Positions 20,330-50,222 of a stretch of 64,000 bases of DNA are shown here, piece after piece. The notes under the pieces were generated by a model that was not told the DNA's origin, did not search any database, and saw nothing but the letters and a program-made list of their open reading frames with translations. The stretch covers positions 937,501-1,001,500 of the forward strand of contig CM065646.1 of assembly GCA_033220425.1 (NCBI GenBank), read 5' to 3'. Every line of letters starts with the position of its first letter. Position 1 is the stretch's first letter. Origin of the DNA: Lepraria neglecta (Eukaryota > Ascomycota > Lecanoromycetes > Lecanorales > Stereocaulaceae). The position numbers and the translations under genes are program-made.

Positions 20330-20331
20330 TA

Positions 20332-22447
20332 CCGGCTTACGTCAGCTGATGCACGGCCTCACCTGATGCACGATTTTGGCTCCACCACCACCTTTAGTTT
20401 TGAAGCTATCTAGGCCTACATACATATCTAATATATCTAATTTTTTGATAGGATGGTCTATAGGATTAGGCGCATCTATCAGGCTATCACATAGTTGGTT
20501 GATATCGCTTAGGAAGACGAATTTGCCTTCCACGAGTATTCAGGGGTGGGGGATCTTCCGTATCTTCTACCACCACCAAATCTTTATTACCCCTAGGATC
20601 GCTTTGTTTTTGAGCTTGGATAGGCTTTTGAACCTTCTTAGCTCTTATTATAAGCTTACTATAAAGCTGCTTGCTAGCTTGCTTAGCTTATATAGCCTTA
20701 TCTTTTTGTTGCTGTTTTTCAGCTAGTTTACGCAATTTCAATTCCCTTATATTTGCCCTGATAGCTTTTCGTTCCTCAACTTTTTAAGCTCTTTCTACCT
20801 TTTCGGCTTCCTTACGAACCCTATCAAGCTCTTTTTAATGATGTTGAGCTGTTGTATTGGCATCTTTTTGAGCTTGTTGGTCGTGTGTATACTGGACCTT
20901 AGTAGGTGAATAGAACATTGCTCCACCATTTTCCTAAGTAGGAAAATCTAGTAATAACGGCTTGCCACGCTTTCGACGCTTCTTTTCGTTGACTAGGCTT
21001 TGTTTAAGGCCATCGTTTTGTTGTTTTAGTAGCATATTCTCAATAGATAGCGCATGCATCGTATTGCTTAGCTGCTGCGCCTTTTTGTTATAGATATTGG
21101 AAACCATATTATATAGCAGCTTTTCAATGCGTTTCCAATCTTCTGCAGCTATTACTGAGCGGGTAGAAGAGGTAGAAGAAGACCGATTATTATTCTTTTC
21201 GGTGAACTTGGTAATAATAAGCTCAGGATCAAAGGGGTGTAGACCAGTTGCTTTGAATCCAGAATAGATATTTTCAGGGGTGAATGAGGTGTTCTAGGCT
21301 TGCCAGAATAGTCGAAAGAAATCCCGTTTAGTAATAGATGAAAAGCCCTGGCATTGATCCATAAATATCGCAAGTTGGTTTGAATATGCCTGTAATAATG
21401 GCCGAAACAAACAGACATCTAGGGGCTGCAGCGTATGTGTTGAATGTGGCGGATATATAGCCAATAGGATCCTATAGGTATCGCAGTAGTCGATGAACTT
21501 CATACTAATATGTGATCCATGGCCATCTAGGATTAGCAGCCTCCAAGATCTTTACGCCTTGGCTTTTGTTTCGCGGTCGAATATTTGCGTCAGCCATTGA
21601 TATCCAAGCTCATTATTAGTCTAACCAGATGGCGATGAGGCGAAGAAACAGCTTTGCGCGTTTGGATCGAAATCCTGAAGCCATGAATCCTGGATAAGGC
21701 CTGTAGTTGCTTAATAGATAAGCCCTGGTGATAGAGCTGATCCATCCGCGCATATAGCTGCAATAGTCGTGATCCATTCGCGATTCCCATCCTGAATAAG
21801 TTGTTTGATCGATCCTTCTTTATAACGCCTGCGGGAAAAAATTCGCTTCATCTTTAAAAGTATTCCCACCAAAAATCCTTTTTTATCCATATTGTATATA
21901 TACTGCGGCTCTACCCTATACTGCTCGATTTTCTTCCTTAATAGCTCAAAATATAATGTATATTTAAATGCCGAATCTGCGCGAGAACGATTATGGTCTA
22001 GGCCCATTGTCCATTTTGAAACCAGCTCAACATGGTGACGGTGTAGAAAGCGCGAAACCCATTCTTTTCCTATCTCTTTATGGCAGATTTCCTGCGCGAA
22101 ATTCCGAATCATATATTTGCTAGGTGGTAGGCCGCGCGCGCATAAGCCATCGATATATTTTACTAAGGATTTTTCTTATTGGTTGTTGAGATTTCGTTGG
22201 TTTTGATACTGGGTATTGCGGGATCCAGTTTTACCGCGATATCGTTTCGATAGGGTAGAACGGTCACATTCGAACTGCTTGGCTATCTTAGTGATATTAA
22301 TGTGATCGTCTGGTGATAGGCTATCTATGAAGGCCAGGGCTGTATCTATCGAGCTCATATTGGTGGAGGTGTATACGGTGGAAGATATGGTGGAAAATGT
22401 CAAAATCGTGCATCAGGTGGGGCCGTGCACCAGATGACGTAAGCCGG
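20332..22447 (-). mobile_element. Fot1/pogo-type DNA transposon, inactivated
   Basis: This 2116-bp Tc1-mariner superfamily element is bounded by 47-bp terminal inverted repeats (20332-20378 and 22401-22447) that differ at three positions. Both ends start CCGGCTTACGTCA. A TA target duplication flanks it (20330-20331 and 22448-22449), so both borders are exact. It carries one long transposase frame on the minus strand. The TIRs are almost intact, so the element could in principle still be moved in trans by an active relative. It sits 153 bp upstream of the NLR-like gene and reads away from it. Confidence 0.9.
20487..22358 (-). pseudogene. Fot1/pogo transposase, nine premature stops
   Basis: One unbroken frame of 624 codons runs from ATG 22358 (MSSIDTALAFIDSLSPDDHI) to TGA 20489-20487 (ending GRQIRLPKRYQPTM), with no frameshift. 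It is interrupted by nine TAA or TAG codons: at 22178, 21713, 21623, 21554, 21296, 20936, 20837, 20786 and 20690 (first base, minus strand). Domains in order: N-terminal HTH (INITKIAKQFECDRSTLSKR), CENP-B-type HTH (KEWVSRFLHRHHVELVSKW), then the DDE core with YNMDKKGF (normally YNMDEKGF), LILDGHGSH and THTLQPLDVCLF. The stops and the E-to-K change all fit C-to-T changes on one strand or the other (CAA/CAG to TAA/TAG, TGG to TAG), as in RIP. No functional transposase can be made from this copy. Confidence 0.9.
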
Positions 22448-22600
22448 TAGTCAGCCCGAATACAGCTTGCAGAAACTTAGCCTTGTGCCGACATAGTCAG
22501 ATCTGATGAGGTATATCGCTCGACTTTGAATCTGCGATTCATCGCGACAATAGACGATTGACAAAGGTGTAAAGACGCAAAGACGGTCCGACCATCCAAT

Positions 22601-25600
22601 ATGCCAGATAGAGACCTTGGTCTCTTGTCTCTTGATGGTGGTGGAGTACGCGGGCTATCGTCGCTTTCTATCCTCAAGAAACTCATGGAAAATATCGATC
22701 CAGACTCGCCGCCAAAGCCGTGCGACTACTTTGACATGATTGGAGGGACAAGTACTGGCGGGTGGGTGATTCCATCCTTCTAATGTCCATCGCTAACATC
22801 CGCAGCCTGATGGCCATTATGTTAGGCTGCCTCGAGATGGACATTGATGAATGTATCTCCGCCTATACGGCCTTATCTGATCGGATCTTTCAGAAGCAGA
22901 AACATCGAGTCAAGATCAACGGGCAAATACAGGGAAGGTTCGATACGGCAGAGCTGGAGCGCTCAGTCAAAGAGGTTATAGTTCAAAAAGGACTGCAGGA
23001 GGATGCGCTGCTCAAAAGATCAGACCCATGTTGCAAGGTGTAAGAGACCAAATCTTTACCGAAGTAAAGCAAAGCGATGCAAAGCATAGACTAACCGTGG
23101 CCTCTAGTTTTGTATGCGCTACGAGCAAGGAGACTGCCGATACCGTGCATTTCAGAACTTACCCATCGCGTGGCTCATCACACATGTTTCACGCGACGCG
23201 GATCTGGGAAGCCGCTCGAGCTACATCCGCTGCATCATCTTTCTTCGACCCTATCAAGATCGGCCCTTATAACGAGGAGTTTGTTGATGGCGCAACGGGA
23301 GCCAATAATCCTGTACAAGAGCTGTGGAATGAAGCAAAATCTGTTTGGTCCGATGAGCCCTTGGAAAGCAGGATCCAATGTCTCGTGTCTATTGGGACGG
23401 GCGTGCCTTCTCTGAAGCCTTTCGGTTCAAGCCTCGGGGAGATTGGGAAGACGCTGGTGCAGATCGCCACGGAGACCGAGAGAACCGCTGAAACTTTCCA
23501 TCGAGGGCACTCGGAGCTCGACGCCAGTAACCGATATTTTCGTTTCAACGTACTCCGAGGATTAGAAGGAATCGGACTCGAGGATGTATCGCAGAAGAAT
23601 ATAATTATGGCGGCCACCAGTCGCTATATGGAATCTGAAGCAACCGTCAAACAAATGAAGCTCTGCGGGAAGATTCTATTGGCAAGGGAATGTACGTTCA
23701 CACATGACTGATGTATGCCTTGTTCCTCTAACTTTCTATATAGACAACGGCCTATATAAGATCAACTTTAGTATGCGAGGCTGGTCTTTTGTGAATCACT
23801 TTGTGGCCCGTGACAAAGAACTAGAACAGTTAGAGCAAACCTTGCTGCCAAGGCAAACTCGTGACTTACATCGTAAGGTCCTAATCTTGCACGGACTTGG
23901 CGGCATAGGTAAAACGCAACTGGCTGTAGCATTTGCCAGAAAGTATCAAAAGACATACAGTTCAATCTTTTGGCTAAATGGTGGCAGTAAGGATCAAGTA
24001 CGGCAAAGCCTTGCAGAGATCGCACGACGATTGCCAGAGGGTCAAATCTCCGAATTCAGCAGGACCTTCACTAAATCATCGAGCGAAGATCTCGATATTA
24101 TTATCAACGAAGTTCAAAATTGGTTCAGTCAACCTGCAAACAATCGATGGCTTCTCATCTTTGATAATGTTGATCGGGATCATTCCCCTGAGCTTCCCTC
24201 AAAAGTACGCGATCTGCATGCATTTGACGTCGAAGACTATTTTCCAGGTAGCGATCACGGCTCAATCCTAGTGACAAGTCGACTGCGCAGGCTAAGGCAA
24301 TACGGGGATAGCTTGGAGCTGACAAAAATGAACGAGCATCAAGGGAAAGCTGTCCTTGAGACCAGAACAGGAAGATCCCTTGAAGGTGCTGTGGCACCAC
24401 CAACGCTCTGCTAAGTAGCACGCTGACTGTGACAGGTCTTGAGCAAATCGTGCATCTCCTCGGCGGTTTACCTCTTGCACTTGCTCACGCCGGTTCTTAT
24501 ATGCATGAGACAGGCATAACTGTCGCCGATTACATCGCCTCTTATCAGAACACATGGAAAGCGCTTTTCGATTGTGAAATGATATCTTTGAAGGAATATC
24601 CAAACCGCAGCATTCAGTCAACATGGACGCTGTCATATGAACACGTTAAGAGAAGGGATCCAGATGCTGTAAAAATGCTAGATCTGTGGGCCTATCTTGA
24701 TTCTTCGGATCTGTGGTATGAATTGTTCACGCCCATTCTTAGCGGCCAGATTGTACTAAAAGACGAGTTACCGGAATGGTTTGTGCGCAGCGTCCACGAG
24801 AAGACCAATTTTACACAGAAAATACGGATGTTGTTGAGCTTTTCACTTGTGGAAACGCAACTCGACTCTTCCGCATATTCTGTGCATCCTGTGGTACATA
24901 AGTGGTGCTTTCACACGATGACTGAAAACAAAGATGAGGTTGCCCCTCTAGCAATTATGGCGGTCGGCTCAGCTTGTCCTTCGGGAACAGAACCAGAGTA
25001 TTGGCTGTTGCAGCGACGATTACTACCGCATTGCGAACGAATTTTACAATGGTCCCAAAGTGATTTGCAAAGTGTCCAAGATTACGAGGGACTAATGGAT
25101 TCCTCCCTCAGTAGATCATTTGACAACCTGGGTAATCTATACCAAGATCAGGGCAAGCTGAAGGAGGCCGAAGAGATGTACCAGCGAGCGTTGGAGGGAA
25201 AAGAGAAGGCATTAGGTCCGGAGCATACGTCCACGCTAAATACAGTTAATAACCTGGGTGTTCTATATAAAGATCAGGGCAAGCTGAAGGAGGCCGAAGA
25301 GATGTACCAGCGAGCGTTAGAGGGAAAAGAGAAAGCATTAGGTCCGGAGCACACGTCCACGCTAGGTATAATTAATAACCTGGGTCTTCTATACCAAGGT
25401 CAGGGCAAGCTGAAGGAGGCCGAAGAGATGTACCAGCGAGCGTTAGAGGGAACTGAGAAAGCATTAGGTCCGGAGCACACGTCCACGCTAGGTATAATTA
25501 ATAACCTAGGTATTCTATATAAAGATCAGGGCAAGCTAAAGGAGGCCGAAGAGATGTACCAGCGAGCGTTAGAGGGAAAAGAGAAAGCATTAGGTCCAGA

Positions 25601-26984
25601 GCATACGTCTACGCTACGCACAGTCAATAACCTAGGTCTTCTATATCAAGATCAGGGCAAGCTAAAGGAGGCCGAAGAGATGTACCAGCGAGCGTTAGAG
25701 GGAAAAGAGAAGGTATTAGGTCCAGAGCATACGTCTACGCTAGACACAGTTAATAACCTAGGTCTTCTATACCAAGATCAGGGCAAGCTAAAGGAGGCCG
25801 AAGAGATGTACCAGCGAGCGTTGGAGGGAAAAGAGAAGGCATTAGGTCCGGAGCATACGTCCACGCTAGATATAGTTAATAACCTGGGTGTTCTATATAA
25901 AGATCAGGGCAAGCTGAAGGAGGCCGAAGAGATGTACCAGCGAGCGTTAGAGGGAAAAGAGAAAGCATTAGGTCCGGAGCACACGTCCACGCTAGGTATA
26001 ATTAATAACCTAGGTATTCTATATAAAGATCAGGGCAAGCTGAAGGAGGCCGAAGAGATGTACCAGCGAGCGTTAGAGGGAACTGAGAAAGCATTAGGTC
26101 CAGAGCATACGTCCACGCTAGATATAGTTAATAACCTAGGTTCTCTATACCAAGATCAGGGCAAGCTAAAGGAGGCCGAAGAGATGTACCAGCGAGCGTT
26201 AGAGGGAAAAGAGAAGGCATTAGGTCCGGAGCATACATCTACGCTAAATACAGTCAATAACCTGGGTCTTCTATATAAAGATCAGGGCAAGCTAAAGGAG
26301 GCCGAAGAGATGTACCAGCGAGCGTTAGAGGGAAAAGAGAAGGCATTAGGTCCGGAGCATACATCTACGCTAAATACAGTCAATAACCTAGGTCTTCTAT
26401 ACCAAGATCAGGGCAAGTTAAAGGAGGCCGAAGAGATGTACCAGCGAGCGTTAGAGGGAACTGAGAAGGCATTAGGTCCAGAGCATACGTCTACGCTAGG
26501 CACAGTCAATAACCTGGGTACTCTATATAAAGATCAGGGCAAGCTAAAGGAGGCCGAAGAGATATACCAGCGAGCGTTAGAGGGAAAAGAGAAGGCATTA
26601 GGTCCGGAGCATACGTCTACGCTAAATACAGTCAATAACCTAGGTCTTCTATACCAAGATCAGGGCAAGTTAAAGGAGGCCGAAGAGATGTACCAGCGAG
26701 CGTTAGAGGGAACTGAGAAGGCATTAGGTCCAGAGCATACGTCTACGCTACAAATAGTCAATAACCTGGGTTCTCTATATAAAGATCAGGGCAAGCTAAA
26801 GGAGGCCGAAGAGATGTACCAGCGAGCGTTAGAGGGAAAAGAGAAGGCATTAGGTCCGGAGCACACGTCTACGCTAGGCACAGCTGGAAATTTAAGACGT
26901 CTACGCAAGGAAAGGACTCAACCGAAAAAAAGATTCTGCGCAATCAGTTTGGAAAGAATGCGAGCAGTTTTCTCTTCTGCCTAA
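22601..26984 (+). CDS. patatin / NB-ARC / TPR NLR-like receptor
   Basis: Fungal STAND/NLR-type protein of 1389 residues, probably cytosolic, with a role in non-self recognition or regulated cell death inferred from the family. Exons: 22601-22761, 22806-23039, 23108-23691, 23744-24385, 24436-26984; all joins in frame. Residues 1-325 form a patatin-like phospholipase with oxyanion loop DGGGVRG, nucleophile elbow GTSTG and catalytic Asp in VDGATGANNP. Residues about 345-600 form an NB-ARC with P-loop GLGGIGKTQLA, Walker B WLLIFDNVD, sensor SILVTSR, GLPLAL and later YSVHPVVHKW. Residues about 772-1359 are 14 nearly identical 42-residue TPR units of the kinesin-light-chain type. All catalytic and nucleotide-binding motifs look intact, so the gene is probably functional. 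A Fot1/pogo element ends 153 bp before the start codon, in the promoter zone. Confidence 0.92.
25128..26891 (+). repeat. 14 tandem 126-bp TPR units
   Basis: Fourteen head-to-tail units of exactly 126 bp each encode one TPR. The core GKLKEAEEMYQRALEG is invariant except for one M-to-I in unit 12. Differences between units cluster at few sites: residue 3 (N, V, L, I, S or T), residue 6 (Q or K), the G-K/T-E-K site, and the three residues before NN (NTV, GII, RTV, DTV, DIV, GTV, QIV). Near-identity over the rest of the unit implies recent duplication or continuing gene conversion. Confidence 0.97.
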
Positions 26985-27446: not shown

Positions 27447-27984
27447 AAGAAGAGCTAGATTGCTGCTCCGGTCTGCTATGCGTCATTACTAGGACTTAAC
27501 CAGGCTTTGCATGGATTAATCAATACTGAGGAGATAGAGAGTATGAGGCTCCATCACTTGCATCTATGTCCAAGGTCTCTAAACAAATCAACGCTCAAGG
27601 TGGATACTATAGCAATGCAATGCAAGCGGCATCGTACGAAGGCCACGAGACAGCGGCGCTACCGTGCAGATAGACTGATCTTCTTGGCGCTTGCTCTTTC
27701 TTCATTTTCCGTTGAGAGTTCGAGCCCGCTCGTTGCTACTCTTGTATCTCCCCGGCAGCGAGGAGCAGTTCCTCGAGGCTCGAGAGGGATTTGCTTTCTT
27801 CGTTACTGTGCCTGACTTTACTTAACTGCGACTCATGTTAGTTGGACTGGAAGAAAGGTTGACGATGTGCTCACGGCACGAAAGTCTTGGCAAGGATATT
27901 AAACCTTACCCCACCGAGCCCGCTCAGTGGAAAATGTGTGCAAGCATGAGTCATTCAGTCCCAAAAATAAGTTGATTATCGTCA

Positions 27985-28730
27985 TGATAAGTCTCTGCAT
28001 ACACACTCCAACTTATCATGGCTTGCCACTGCATATCTCATGGCCACAGCAGTGTCGCAACCAATCAGTGGTCGGTTGACAGACATATACGGGCGACGAG
28101 CTGGTCTCGTGTTGAGCAATGCCACGTTTGGCGTCGGTAATTTGATTTGTGGCCTAGCAACATCTACGGGAGTCTTGCTCCTTGGAAGGACTATCGCAGG
28201 CATTTGCGGAGGTGGAATCTATGCGATCGCGACCTTTGTGGGGCCTGATCTGATTCCTCTGAGAAAGAGGGGGATCGCTTTGGGAGCCAATAATATAATG
28301 TATGGCTTTGGACTGTCACTTGGTGGCATTCTCGGAGGCTGGATCGCCGACTCAACTGGCTGGAAGTGGGTCTTCCTCATACAAGTCCCATTCGTAGCCT
28401 TCACCACTGTCCTTGTCTTCTTTGTAGTGAAGGTCCCCCGGAAGAGGGAGCATACACCTTTGAGTCAAATCGACTATCCCGGCTCCGTGCTCTTGACAAC
28501 AGGACTGGTATTGCTGCTTTTAGGTCTCAATGATGGAGGTAACCTTGCGTAAGGGGCCAGCGCCCTGGTTCTTACGACCATCCCTCTATCTGGGGTGTGC
28601 CTGACTGGTTTCGTCTGGTGGGAGACGAAATCAGCTGTACCGATCATCCCGGTACCTCTGTTTCTACACCAAACTGTTGCTGCGGCCTGCTTGATATATC
28701 TAGTCACTTTGGTCATCGACCTATCATGTG
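27985..28730 (+). pseudogene. MFS drug-transporter remnant, truncated
   Basis: A piece of a 14-helix DHA2-type major facilitator. Protein similarity starts at LSWLATAYLMATAVSQPISG and continues through motif A-like GRLTDIYGRRAGL, GRTIAGICGGGIYAIATFVG and GWKWVFLIQVPF to GLNDGGNLA. There an in-frame TAA (28550-28552) interrupts, and the same frame resumes with GASALVLTTIPLSGV and WWETKSAVPIIPVPLFLH before fading near 28700. The N-terminal helix and the last eight or so helices are missing. The broken stop falls where a Trp or Gln codon is expected, consistent with C-to-T mutation. It is surely non-functional as a transporter. Confidence 0.85.
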
Positions 28731-48106: not shown

Positions 48107-48427
48107 TCTTCCCTTTCCCTTTTCTTCTCCTTTTCCCTCTTCTTCTCTTTTTCTCTTTTTCTCTCCCTTTCCCTTTTCTTTTCTCTCTCCTTTTTCTTCT
48201 CCCTTTCCTTTTCCTTCTCTCTTTTCCTTTCCTTCTCCTTTTCCCTCTTCATCTCTTTTTCTCTTTTTCTCTCCCTTTCCCTTTTCTTCTCCTTTTCCCT
48301 CTTCTTCTATTTTTCTCTTTTTCTCTCCCTTGGCCTTTTCTTTTCTCTCTCCTTTTTCTTCTCCCTCTCTCTTTCCCTTTCCCTTTCCCTCTTCTCCTCC
48401 CTCTCTCTCTCCCTTTCCCTTTCTTTT
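48107..48427. repeat. polypyrimidine (CT) low-complexity tract
   Basis: About 320 bp of almost pure pyrimidine on the plus strand, made from units such as TTTTCTCTCCCTTTCC, with scattered A or G. It creates spurious Lys/Glu/Arg-rich frames on the minus strand and Ser/Phe/Leu-rich ones on the plus strand. Such mirror-like tracts can form triplex (H-DNA) structures. Confidence 0.95.
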
Positions 48428-48531
48428 CTTATCTGCCGCCGCGCCCTCTGATGTCTTTCTCTTCCCCTTAACGTTTCATTTGAGCTTTCCCACAAGATGT
48501 TCGTTGAGCTTGCCATTGAGGGTTCCCATGA

Positions 48532-48618
48532 GCTATCATCCGTGTAGTTATCATCCGTGTAGCTATCGTCCGTGAAGCTATCATCCGTGAAGCTATCATC
48601 CGTGAAGCTATCCGTGAA
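48532..48618. repeat. 15-bp minisatellite
   Basis: Five tandem copies of CTATCATCCGTGAAG-like units (variants end TGTAG), followed by a 12-bp partial copy. In the minus strand each unit reads (S/N)(F/Y)TDD within a longer open frame (48307-48774). Confidence 0.95.
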
Positions 48619-50222
48619 GCTATTCGTTGACCTCTCTCGTTCTCTCTCTCTCTTCCTCTCCCTCTTGCTTTTCCTTTTCATCCTATCCGTTTCCCTCGGC
48701 TGCCGTTCTCTCCGGAGCCCGAGCAAGTCTGTCAGATGCAGCGCGGCGTTGACCCAAAAACTCACCATAGCCAATCGATTAAATTGGGATAGATGGAATC
48801 TGCAGGTTGAAAATTGCGCAACGAGATTGCGATGTTCAAGTAAGAAGCGCTTTCATGGTCAACCATATAGTAATTTGAAAAGTAGACGTAAGGACACAGT
48901 GGACGATATTTCAACATTTATAGCATACTGGCCCGACTGCCGGTAGACCGATACTTGAAACTTCAATGAGGCTGAAAGGTCTCGGCTTGACGCGTCAAAT
49001 CTATCTATTTCTCCTTTTGGTCTAGAAAGTCAAGGATTGATAGCAGCATTTTACACCTTTCAGGCCTATGCCCGACAATTCGCCCTCGGCTTTTCACTTT
49101 CTGCTTCCTAATCTCAGACAATTCATTCCCCGAATTTGGGGTCCACCGTATACGTATAATCTGGCCTCACGGTCATTCTTCAAACAAAGATTGGAAGAAC
49201 CGGAGCGCTAATTTGTGTTTGACCGAGCCAATGACAACGTAATGGAACTCAGCGGGTTGGTTGACATTGCTACACACGTCAACAGCGGCGGTTAGCAAAC
49301 ACATGTCATTTGTTACCGTATAGAGCTCTGGCTGCTGATATGCAATTTGCCTGCTCAGTGCCGTTGCTTGTGTTTTGCATTGTGACTGAATTAGCATAGA
49401 AGTACCGTAAGGCTAGCCGCCAAGAGAAGAGATGATGCAAGCTTCGTCTGGGTCTCGTCCCTTCAACCGACGACGTGCTCCTTTTCAAGATACAGCCATC
49501 GCGAAATAACTGAAACTGGCCCCCAAGTCGCGCTCAAGAGACCGAACCATGGAGGCCACCCTCTGATGAAACAAATGGGAAACACGTGTTTCCGCTGTCC
49601 GGGTTGCAATATATCAATCAATGCCCACATCGATTCATCCAACACGTTCCAACAACACACATCTATTAGTGTCAGGTAGACAACCCTCACACGTTCGGCT
49701 CCATCCGTCGCCAAAGGCCATATCCGTCAGCTATGGTGTAGAGCATACATGAGTGGTCGAGAAGAAGGCAGCTGGCTATGTCAGATAACAGCCCCTATGC
49801 ATGTCTGCCTTTAAGTGTGATTTTGAGTCTCGATTGCACTTGGTGTTCAGACGGTGGTAGGCTCAGGCTGGCCTTGCACTACTATTCAACAACTGAGTAC
49901 ATAAGATTCTCGCGTTTTGAGTAATGGTTCGCCCTTTACACGAAGGACATTTCATGACGCGTTGTGTCTTAATTGCGTAGAAGGATGGTGGGCGTGGTTT
50001 AGCATTGGTTATACAGAAATACTCAGAACCTGGTATCTGCCTTTGGGCGGCTAATTTCCATGTTCTTGCTCTCGTTTAGTTGCATAGCCTTGTCGGAAAA
50101 ACTTATAAATTCATGGTTCAGCCTTGCACGAACACGCATGTCTTTCCTTAAATTCCAATTATCTTCCATCGAAGCGTTTGAAGCAGCCGATTATCTTCCA
50201 TTTTGCCCTTTGTCTTTTTAAA

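What the first reader, a model, noticed from the sequence alone, without database searches (positions are those of the whole stretch)
22601..26984. Intact patatin-NLR with 14 nearly identical TPR units
The sequence shows intact lipase (GTSTG, DGA), NB-ARC (GIGKT, LLIFDNVD) and 14 repeats of exactly 126 bp. Variation is concentrated at a few residues (positions 3 and 6, the K/T site, and the triplet before NN). Fungal NLRs with such high internal repeat identity are known to carry recognition variation. This locus may be a het-type or immune-like receptor.
Basis: partly seen in the sequence, partly recalled or inferred. Interest (0 to 1): 0.85.

Follow-up and report, generated by a model that had tools for sequence, protein, structure and literature searches.

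The report
Fungal immune-type receptor with repeat array
This is an apparently intact fungal gene for a self/non-self-type receptor (a lipase, a molecular switch and a sensor of 14 nearly identical repeats), a clear example of a kind of receptor already described in fungi.

Summary
With four GT-AG introns, 22601-26984 gives one open gene of 1389 aa: patatin lipase (Pfam E 1.2e-25), NB-ARC (2.6e-8) and 42-residue TPRs. The array, 25122-26885, is 14 contiguous units of exactly 126 bp, 91.3% identical on average, 13 of 14 distinct. Six of 42 codons carry 86% of the amino-acid diversity (0 of 2000 random placements reach this). The three most variable positions correspond to TPR positions 9, 2 and 12, all among seven published hypervariable ligand-face positions. 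The class reading (het-type or immune-like NLR) is supported: patatin/NB-ARC/TPR NLRs with near-identical repeats, repeat-number polymorphism and diversifying selection are in print (Dyrka 2014), and Neurospora PLP-1 has this architecture. Positive selection is only suggestive from one allele and not significant after correction. Population variation, ligand and cell death could not be tested. None of the 68 other ORFs of 130 aa or more in the window matched a SNARE family. In passing: a pogo-like element ends 151 bp before the start codon. New member of a known kind.

The parts
22601..26984 (+). patatin/NB-ARC/TPR NLR gene, 5 exons, 1389 aa
   Evidence: spliced open frame with four GT-AG introns; Pfam Patatin, NB-ARC, TPR_10/TPR_12
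22601..22761 (+). exon 1: start of patatin domain, with GTSTG near its end
22806..23039 (+). exon 2: patatin domain
23108..23691 (+). exon 3: rest of patatin domain with DGA motif (Pfam match residues 9-205)
   Evidence: phmmer matches to CBASS CapV phospholipases, patatin 1oxw and iPLA2beta
23744..24385 (+). exon 4: NB-ARC with Walker A GLGGIGKT and Walker B-like LLIFDNVD
   Evidence: Pfam NB-ARC residues 350-589, running into exon 5
24436..26984 (+). exon 5: end of NB-ARC (GLPLAL), linker, TPR array, short non-repeat C-terminus
25122..26885 (+). 14 tandem 126-bp units encoding 42-residue kinesin-light-chain-type TPRs
   Evidence: predicted two-helix pattern in each unit, weaker in unit 14
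22762..22805 (+). intron 1
   Evidence: GT-AG and frame
23040..23107 (+). intron 2
   Evidence: GT-AG and frame
23692..23743 (+). intron 3
   Evidence: GT-AG and frame
24386..24435 (+). intron 4
   Evidence: GT-AG and frame, donor GTGCTG
20330..22449 (-). pogo/Tc1-type element: 49-nt terminal inverted repeats 94% complementary, TA at both outer ends, broken transposase frame; right end 151 bp before the NLR start codon
   Evidence: inverted repeat I1, Tc5 transposase DNA-binding domain on the - strand, end sequences, distance

Best explanation
An intracellular fungal NLR of the patatin/NB-ARC/TPR architecture. Shown: the domains, the intact spliced frame, the near-identical 126-bp array, strong constraint on 36 codons and concentration of change on six. 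Inferred: the 14 TPRs form a superhelix whose inner face reads a cell-internal protein (own, altered, or from a fusion partner); binding lets NB-ARC exchange nucleotide and oligomerise; this clusters the N-terminal patatin lipases, which attack membrane lipids and kill or wall off the cell. The near-identical units exchange and duplicate, so unit order and number can change quickly while the scaffold is kept, changing the reading surface (unit positions 5, 8 and 40, i.e. TPR positions 9, 12 and 2).
For: Pfam: TPR_12 5.5e-195, TPR_10 4.1e-183 (14 stretches), Patatin 1.2e-25, NB-ARC 2.6e-8 (33.9 bits, cut-off 23.5). Patatin relatives include CBASS CapV phospholipases and PADLOC phospholipase effectors. 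Array facts. 36 codons: 4 non-synonymous changes against 40 expected from the synonymous rate; six codons: 15 against 6.8 (the six were chosen after seeing the variation). pN/pS is 0.30 over all 42 codons, 0.04 in the 36 and 1.20 in the six. The three most variable positions are 3 of 3 in the published hypervariable inner-face list (hypergeometric P 0.003). TPR numbering rests on the Pfam TPR_1 match, profile position 5 at unit position 1. Units 2 and 7 identical, exact runs of 138, 135 and 112 bp at offsets of 5, 2 and 1 units: recent internal exchange. In print: patatin NLRs almost invariably carry NB-ARC, and NB-ARC is preferentially followed by TPR; 21.2% of TPR repeats of fungal NLRs show high internal conservation against 0.4-1.2% of such repeats globally, with repeat number polymorphism; PLP-1 death depends on patatin activity and the ATP-binding motif, and PLP-1 binds SEC-9 and itself (review passage).
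Against: One allele, one assembly; no population data, no transcript, no ligand. No SEC-9-like SNARE among 68 of 68 other ORFs of 130 aa or more in the window, though a partner need not be linked and shorter exons were not scanned. Unit positions 27, 41 and 42 are variable but not in the published inner-face list; counting the top six, only 3 of 6 are (P 0.048). Positive selection at codons 5 and 40 does not survive correction for 42 codons. No solved NB-ARC structure matched in the sequence search of the PDB: all 9 hits lie in the patatin part. The structure model is of moderate confidence (no alignment; mean pLDDT 60.7, 0 residues at 90 or more). The short C-terminus after unit 14 may be a worn-down repeat.
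Confidence: 0.75

Rival explanations
1. An NLR gene whose array is homogenised by neutral unequal exchange; the six variable codons are only the tolerant, exposed ones, and no recognition polymorphism is maintained.
For: Relaxed constraint plus exchange would also give few variable codons; the codon-wise excess is not significant after correction; 12 of 24 transition-polymorphic columns sit in RIP-type contexts against 6.3 expected (P 0.005), so mutation bias may supply part of the change.
Against: The three most variable positions are all in the published ligand-face list; codon 5 has six amino acids with an unchanged third base; non-synonymous changes at the six codons are about twice the synonymous expectation (15 against 6.8), although those codons were chosen post hoc.
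Confidence: 0.2
2. The array as assembled is partly an artefact: short reads joined units in a wrong order or number.
For: A 2025 study reports that NLR repeats of 126 bp are not accurately reconstructed from Illumina-based assemblies, with chimeric repeats in some (passages read); here exact runs of 138 and 135 bp exist, near short-read length.
Against: 13 of 14 units differ, with no frame break and no gap; the gene on both sides is continuous. The sequencing technology of this window is unknown to me.
Confidence: 0.15
3. The gene is in frame but silenced or misexpressed because a pogo-like element lies 151 bp upstream of the start codon.
For: Element with 49-nt inverted ends and TA at both ends at 20330-22449.
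Against: The open frame and strong constraint within the array (pN/pS 0.04 in 36 codons) speak for function at least until recently; age and effect of the insertion are unknown.
Confidence: 0.15

Closest known systems
Neurospora crassa PLP-1 (with the SEC-9 systems of Podospora, Cryphonectria and Botrytis), which detects the SNARE SEC-9
   Same: Patatin, NB-ARC and TPR in the same order (review passage); patatin and P-loop motifs present here
   Different: No SEC-9-like gene seen in this window; PLP-1's own sequence and repeat identity were not available to compare; ligand unknown
Fungal NLRs with high internal TPR repeat conservation (Dyrka et al. 2014; Podospora Pa_2_10340 and others)
   Same: Kinesin-light-chain-type TPR units with high internal identity, few variable sites that map to the concave side, unit number like those published (2 to above 15 at Pa_2_10340; 21 in a Penicillium protein)
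   Different: Effector is patatin rather than sesB-like; repeat number polymorphism not tested here
P. anserina kinesin-light-chain-like TPR repeat structures 4y6c/4y6w
   Same: Repeat family (2.8e-21 and 1.1e-22); that they come from work on near-identical 42-residue repeats is recalled
   Different: Solved chains of 229 residues, repeats only; no effector or NB-ARC
HET-E/HET-D/HET-R of P. anserina
   Same: Principle: NLR sensor of near-identical 126-bp repeats with concerted evolution and hypervariable sites
   Different: HET/NACHT/WD40 rather than patatin/NB-ARC/TPR
CBASS CapV phospholipases of bacteria
   Same: Patatin lipase domain (1.8e-14; PADLOC phospholipase effectors to 4.5e-37)
   Different: Named cGAMP-activated in the PDB, not joined to an NB-ARC/TPR sensor

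Membership tests
Fungal NLR (tripartite STAND protein) | N-terminal effector, central NB-ARC or NACHT, C-terminal superstructure-forming repeats | tested here: met
   Pfam order Patatin 9-205, NB-ARC 350-589, TPR from about 769
Fungal NLR (tripartite STAND protein) | P-loop and Walker B of the nucleotide switch | tested here: met
   GLGGIGKT and LLIFDNVD in frame; the meaning of the motifs is recalled
NLR with high internal repeat conservation | Repeats over 85% identical over at least 100 residues | tested here: met
   met by the mean, 90.1% in protein over 588 residues; the lowest unit pair is 81%
NLR with high internal repeat conservation | Repeat number polymorphism between isolates | not testable with these tools
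   no population sequences; no genome held for this window
NLR with high internal repeat conservation | Positive diversifying selection at sites of the binding face | tested here: inconclusive
   top three positions match the face, but the excess of change is not significant after correction
PLP-1/SEC-9 type allorecognition pair | Patatin/NB-ARC/TPR protein | tested here: met
PLP-1/SEC-9 type allorecognition pair | Nearby sec-9 SNARE gene ('nearby' in N. crassa) | tested here: not met
   68 of 68 other stop-to-stop ORFs of 130 aa or more in the window (list) gave no SNARE family match (at E 0.001; at E 0.1); shorter exons not scanned. So it is not filed as such a pair
Patatin-like phospholipase | GxSxG and DGA/DGG catalytic dyad motifs | tested here: met
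   GTSTG 49-53 and DGA in frame; Pfam 1.2e-25 over profile 1-191 of 191
Patatin-like phospholipase | Lipase activity | not testable with these tools
   needs an enzyme assay

The most novel reading that the evidence does not exclude
The receptor's specificity is written in a small code of three inner-face positions per unit (5, 8 and 40) repeated over 14 units, reshuffled by unit exchange and fed with new letters partly by RIP-type mutation, so that one patatin NLR locus makes many specificities in a population.
Probability: 0.3. Interest if true: 0.5.

Novelty: new member of a known kind. Interest (0 to 1): 0.3.

Why it matters
If it is a working receptor, its 14 near-identical units make it a clean case for asking how fungi make new recognition specificities at one locus, and what a patatin NLR without a SNARE gene in view detects. 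The kind itself is already described, so the gain is one well-defined test case rather than a new principle.

Tried and rejected
Considered a pseudogene: rejected, since four GT-AG introns give one frame with no internal stop. Considered close bacterial relatives: the genome-contig scan gave 4 loci (28-63% identity in the best segment); the frames printed at the matches look like other TPR or membrane proteins (L001 ends in what I recognise from recall as a CHAT domain), without a near-identical array to the eye; they were not domain-searched. The viral-contig scan gave nothing. Own-genome search not possible.

RIP: the dinucleotide index of the array is high (+0.67 against -0.73 for 22601-25121), but the array is one unit 14 times over, so the index is not independent evidence; the context test is suggestive only (12 of 24 columns; 13 of 27 by a looser count). 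Foldseek: 425 chains at E 0.001 or better, 50 shown; the ones I could judge are TPR proteins or other helical-repeat complexes (best 1.1e-13; kinesin light chain 1 with TMt up to 0.76); this confirms TPR and no more. The taxon is not established: the neighbouring ATP sulfurylase matches solved chains 1m8p/1i2d best (4.3e-251, 4.4e-251), which I recall as Penicillium, so a Eurotiomycete is a guess.

Full report
Observation. The window holds an apparently intact gene at the stated place. The raw frame is cut by four short introns (44, 68, 52 and 50 nt), all GT-AG; joined, 22601-26984 reads 4170 nt, 1389 aa, with one stop at the end. No transcript supports the introns; frame, splice sites and domain continuity do. 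Pfam gives Patatin (1.2e-25, residues 9-205, profile 1-191 of 191), NB-ARC (2.6e-8, residues 350-589) and TPR_10/TPR_12 (4.1e-183/5.5e-195). A sequence search of the PDB with the part before the array gave 9 hits, all in the patatin part, CBASS CapV first (1.8e-14); no solved NB-ARC matched.

Array. 25122-26885 is 14 units of exactly 126 bp without gap. Mean identity is 91.3% in DNA and 90.1% in protein; 13 of 14 units are distinct in DNA and in protein. Units 2 and 7 are identical; exact runs of 138 bp (offset 5 units), 135 bp (2 units) and 112 bp (1 unit) point to recent internal copying. The change at position 27 (K/T) is always AAA against ACT, two bases together, with ACT in 4 of 14 units, as expected if units spread by exchange rather than by repeated mutation (inference).

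Where the variation lies. Of 42 codons, 10 vary in amino acid. Six of them (5, 8, 27, 40, 41, 42) hold 86% of the amino-acid heterozygosity; 0 of 2000 random placements reach that. This null ignores purifying selection, so it shows concentration only. pN/pS is 0.30 over the whole unit, 1.20 in the six and 0.04 in the other 36. Counting the fewest changes per codon, the 36 other codons have 4 non-synonymous changes against 40 expected from the synonymous rate; the six have 15 against 6.8 (Poisson P 0.005, codons chosen after the fact). Codons 5 and 40 have 5 each against 1.0 and 1.2 (P 0.004 and 0.007; 0.18 and 0.30 after multiplication by 42); codons 8, 27, 41 and 42 show no excess. So constraint elsewhere is strong and diversifying selection is suggested, not shown.

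Position on the TPR. By the Pfam TPR_1 match (residue 938, unit position 1, at profile position 5), unit positions 5, 8 and 40 are TPR positions 9, 12 and 2. Magliery and Regan 2005 (PMC1261162, passages read; authors recalled) list 2, 5, 9, 12, 13, 33 and 34 as the most variable and as exposed on the concave face. The three most variable positions here are all in that list (P 0.003); of the top six, 3 are (P 0.048); of all ten variable positions, 6 are (P 0.0003), four of the ten being single-unit changes. Positions 41, 42 and 27 are not. AlphaFold2 on exon 5 alone, without an alignment, gives the two-helix pattern in each unit (weaker in unit 14) at moderate confidence (mean pLDDT 60.7; residues 1-227, before the array, under 50); Foldseek matches TPR proteins, kinesin light chain 1 among them.

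Surroundings. A pogo/Tc1-type element lies at 20330-22449: 49-nt ends 94% complementary, TA at both outer ends, a Tc5-type transposase DNA-binding domain in a broken - strand frame. Its right end leaves 151 bp to the NLR start codon. Further neighbours look ordinary: Med12, F-BAR and RhoGAP frames, ATP sulfurylase, PAPS reductase and an Arb2-domain gene, an MBA1-like frame. A 193-aa MFS frame at 27971-28552 has no Pfam match in the next two + frames scanned. None of the 68 other ORFs of 130 aa or more (of 71; three belong to the NLR) matched a SNARE family; exons shorter than 130 aa were not scanned.

What is known. Dyrka et al. 2014 (PMC4986451; abstract, passages, sections 12 and 17 read) describe fungal NLRs in which patatin is almost invariably associated with NB-ARC and NB-ARC is preferentially followed by TPR, with 21.2% of TPR repeats of high internal conservation, repeat number polymorphism at each of eight Podospora ANK and TPR loci tested, and variable TPR sites on the concave side. 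Reviews (PMC10197012 and PMC12881547, passages read) describe N. crassa PLP-1 as patatin/NB-ARC/TPR, interacting with SEC-9 and with itself, with death dependent on the patatin activity and the ATP-binding motif; Heller et al. 2018 itself was not held. In A. fumigatus, hetC alleles encode a patatin-like protein without the other NLR parts (PMC11138114, passages read). Short-read assemblies of 126-bp NLR repeats are reported unreliable (PMC12222747, passages read), a caution for this array too.

Verdict. A well-preserved new member of a known kind.

Noticed in passing
20330-22449: Pogo/Tc1-type element with 49-nt inverted ends, TA at both ends and a broken transposase frame, ending 151 bp before the NLR start codon.
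   Followed up: partly
27971-28552: MFS transporter frame of 193 aa matching positions 26-187 of 347 of the Pfam profile, with no Pfam match in the next two + frames; possibly a truncated gene.
   Followed up: partly
48110-48623: Pyrimidine-rich tandem array (periods 18, 54 and 12; 48110-48414) followed at 48531-48623 by a 15-bp period array.
   Followed up: no
26886-26984: C-terminus after unit 14 keeps only a trace of the repeat (GNLRRLRKE...) and may be a worn-down fifteenth unit.
   Followed up: no
25122-26885: 12 of 24 transition-polymorphic columns lie in CpA/TpG-type (RIP-like) contexts, 6.3 expected.
   Followed up: partly
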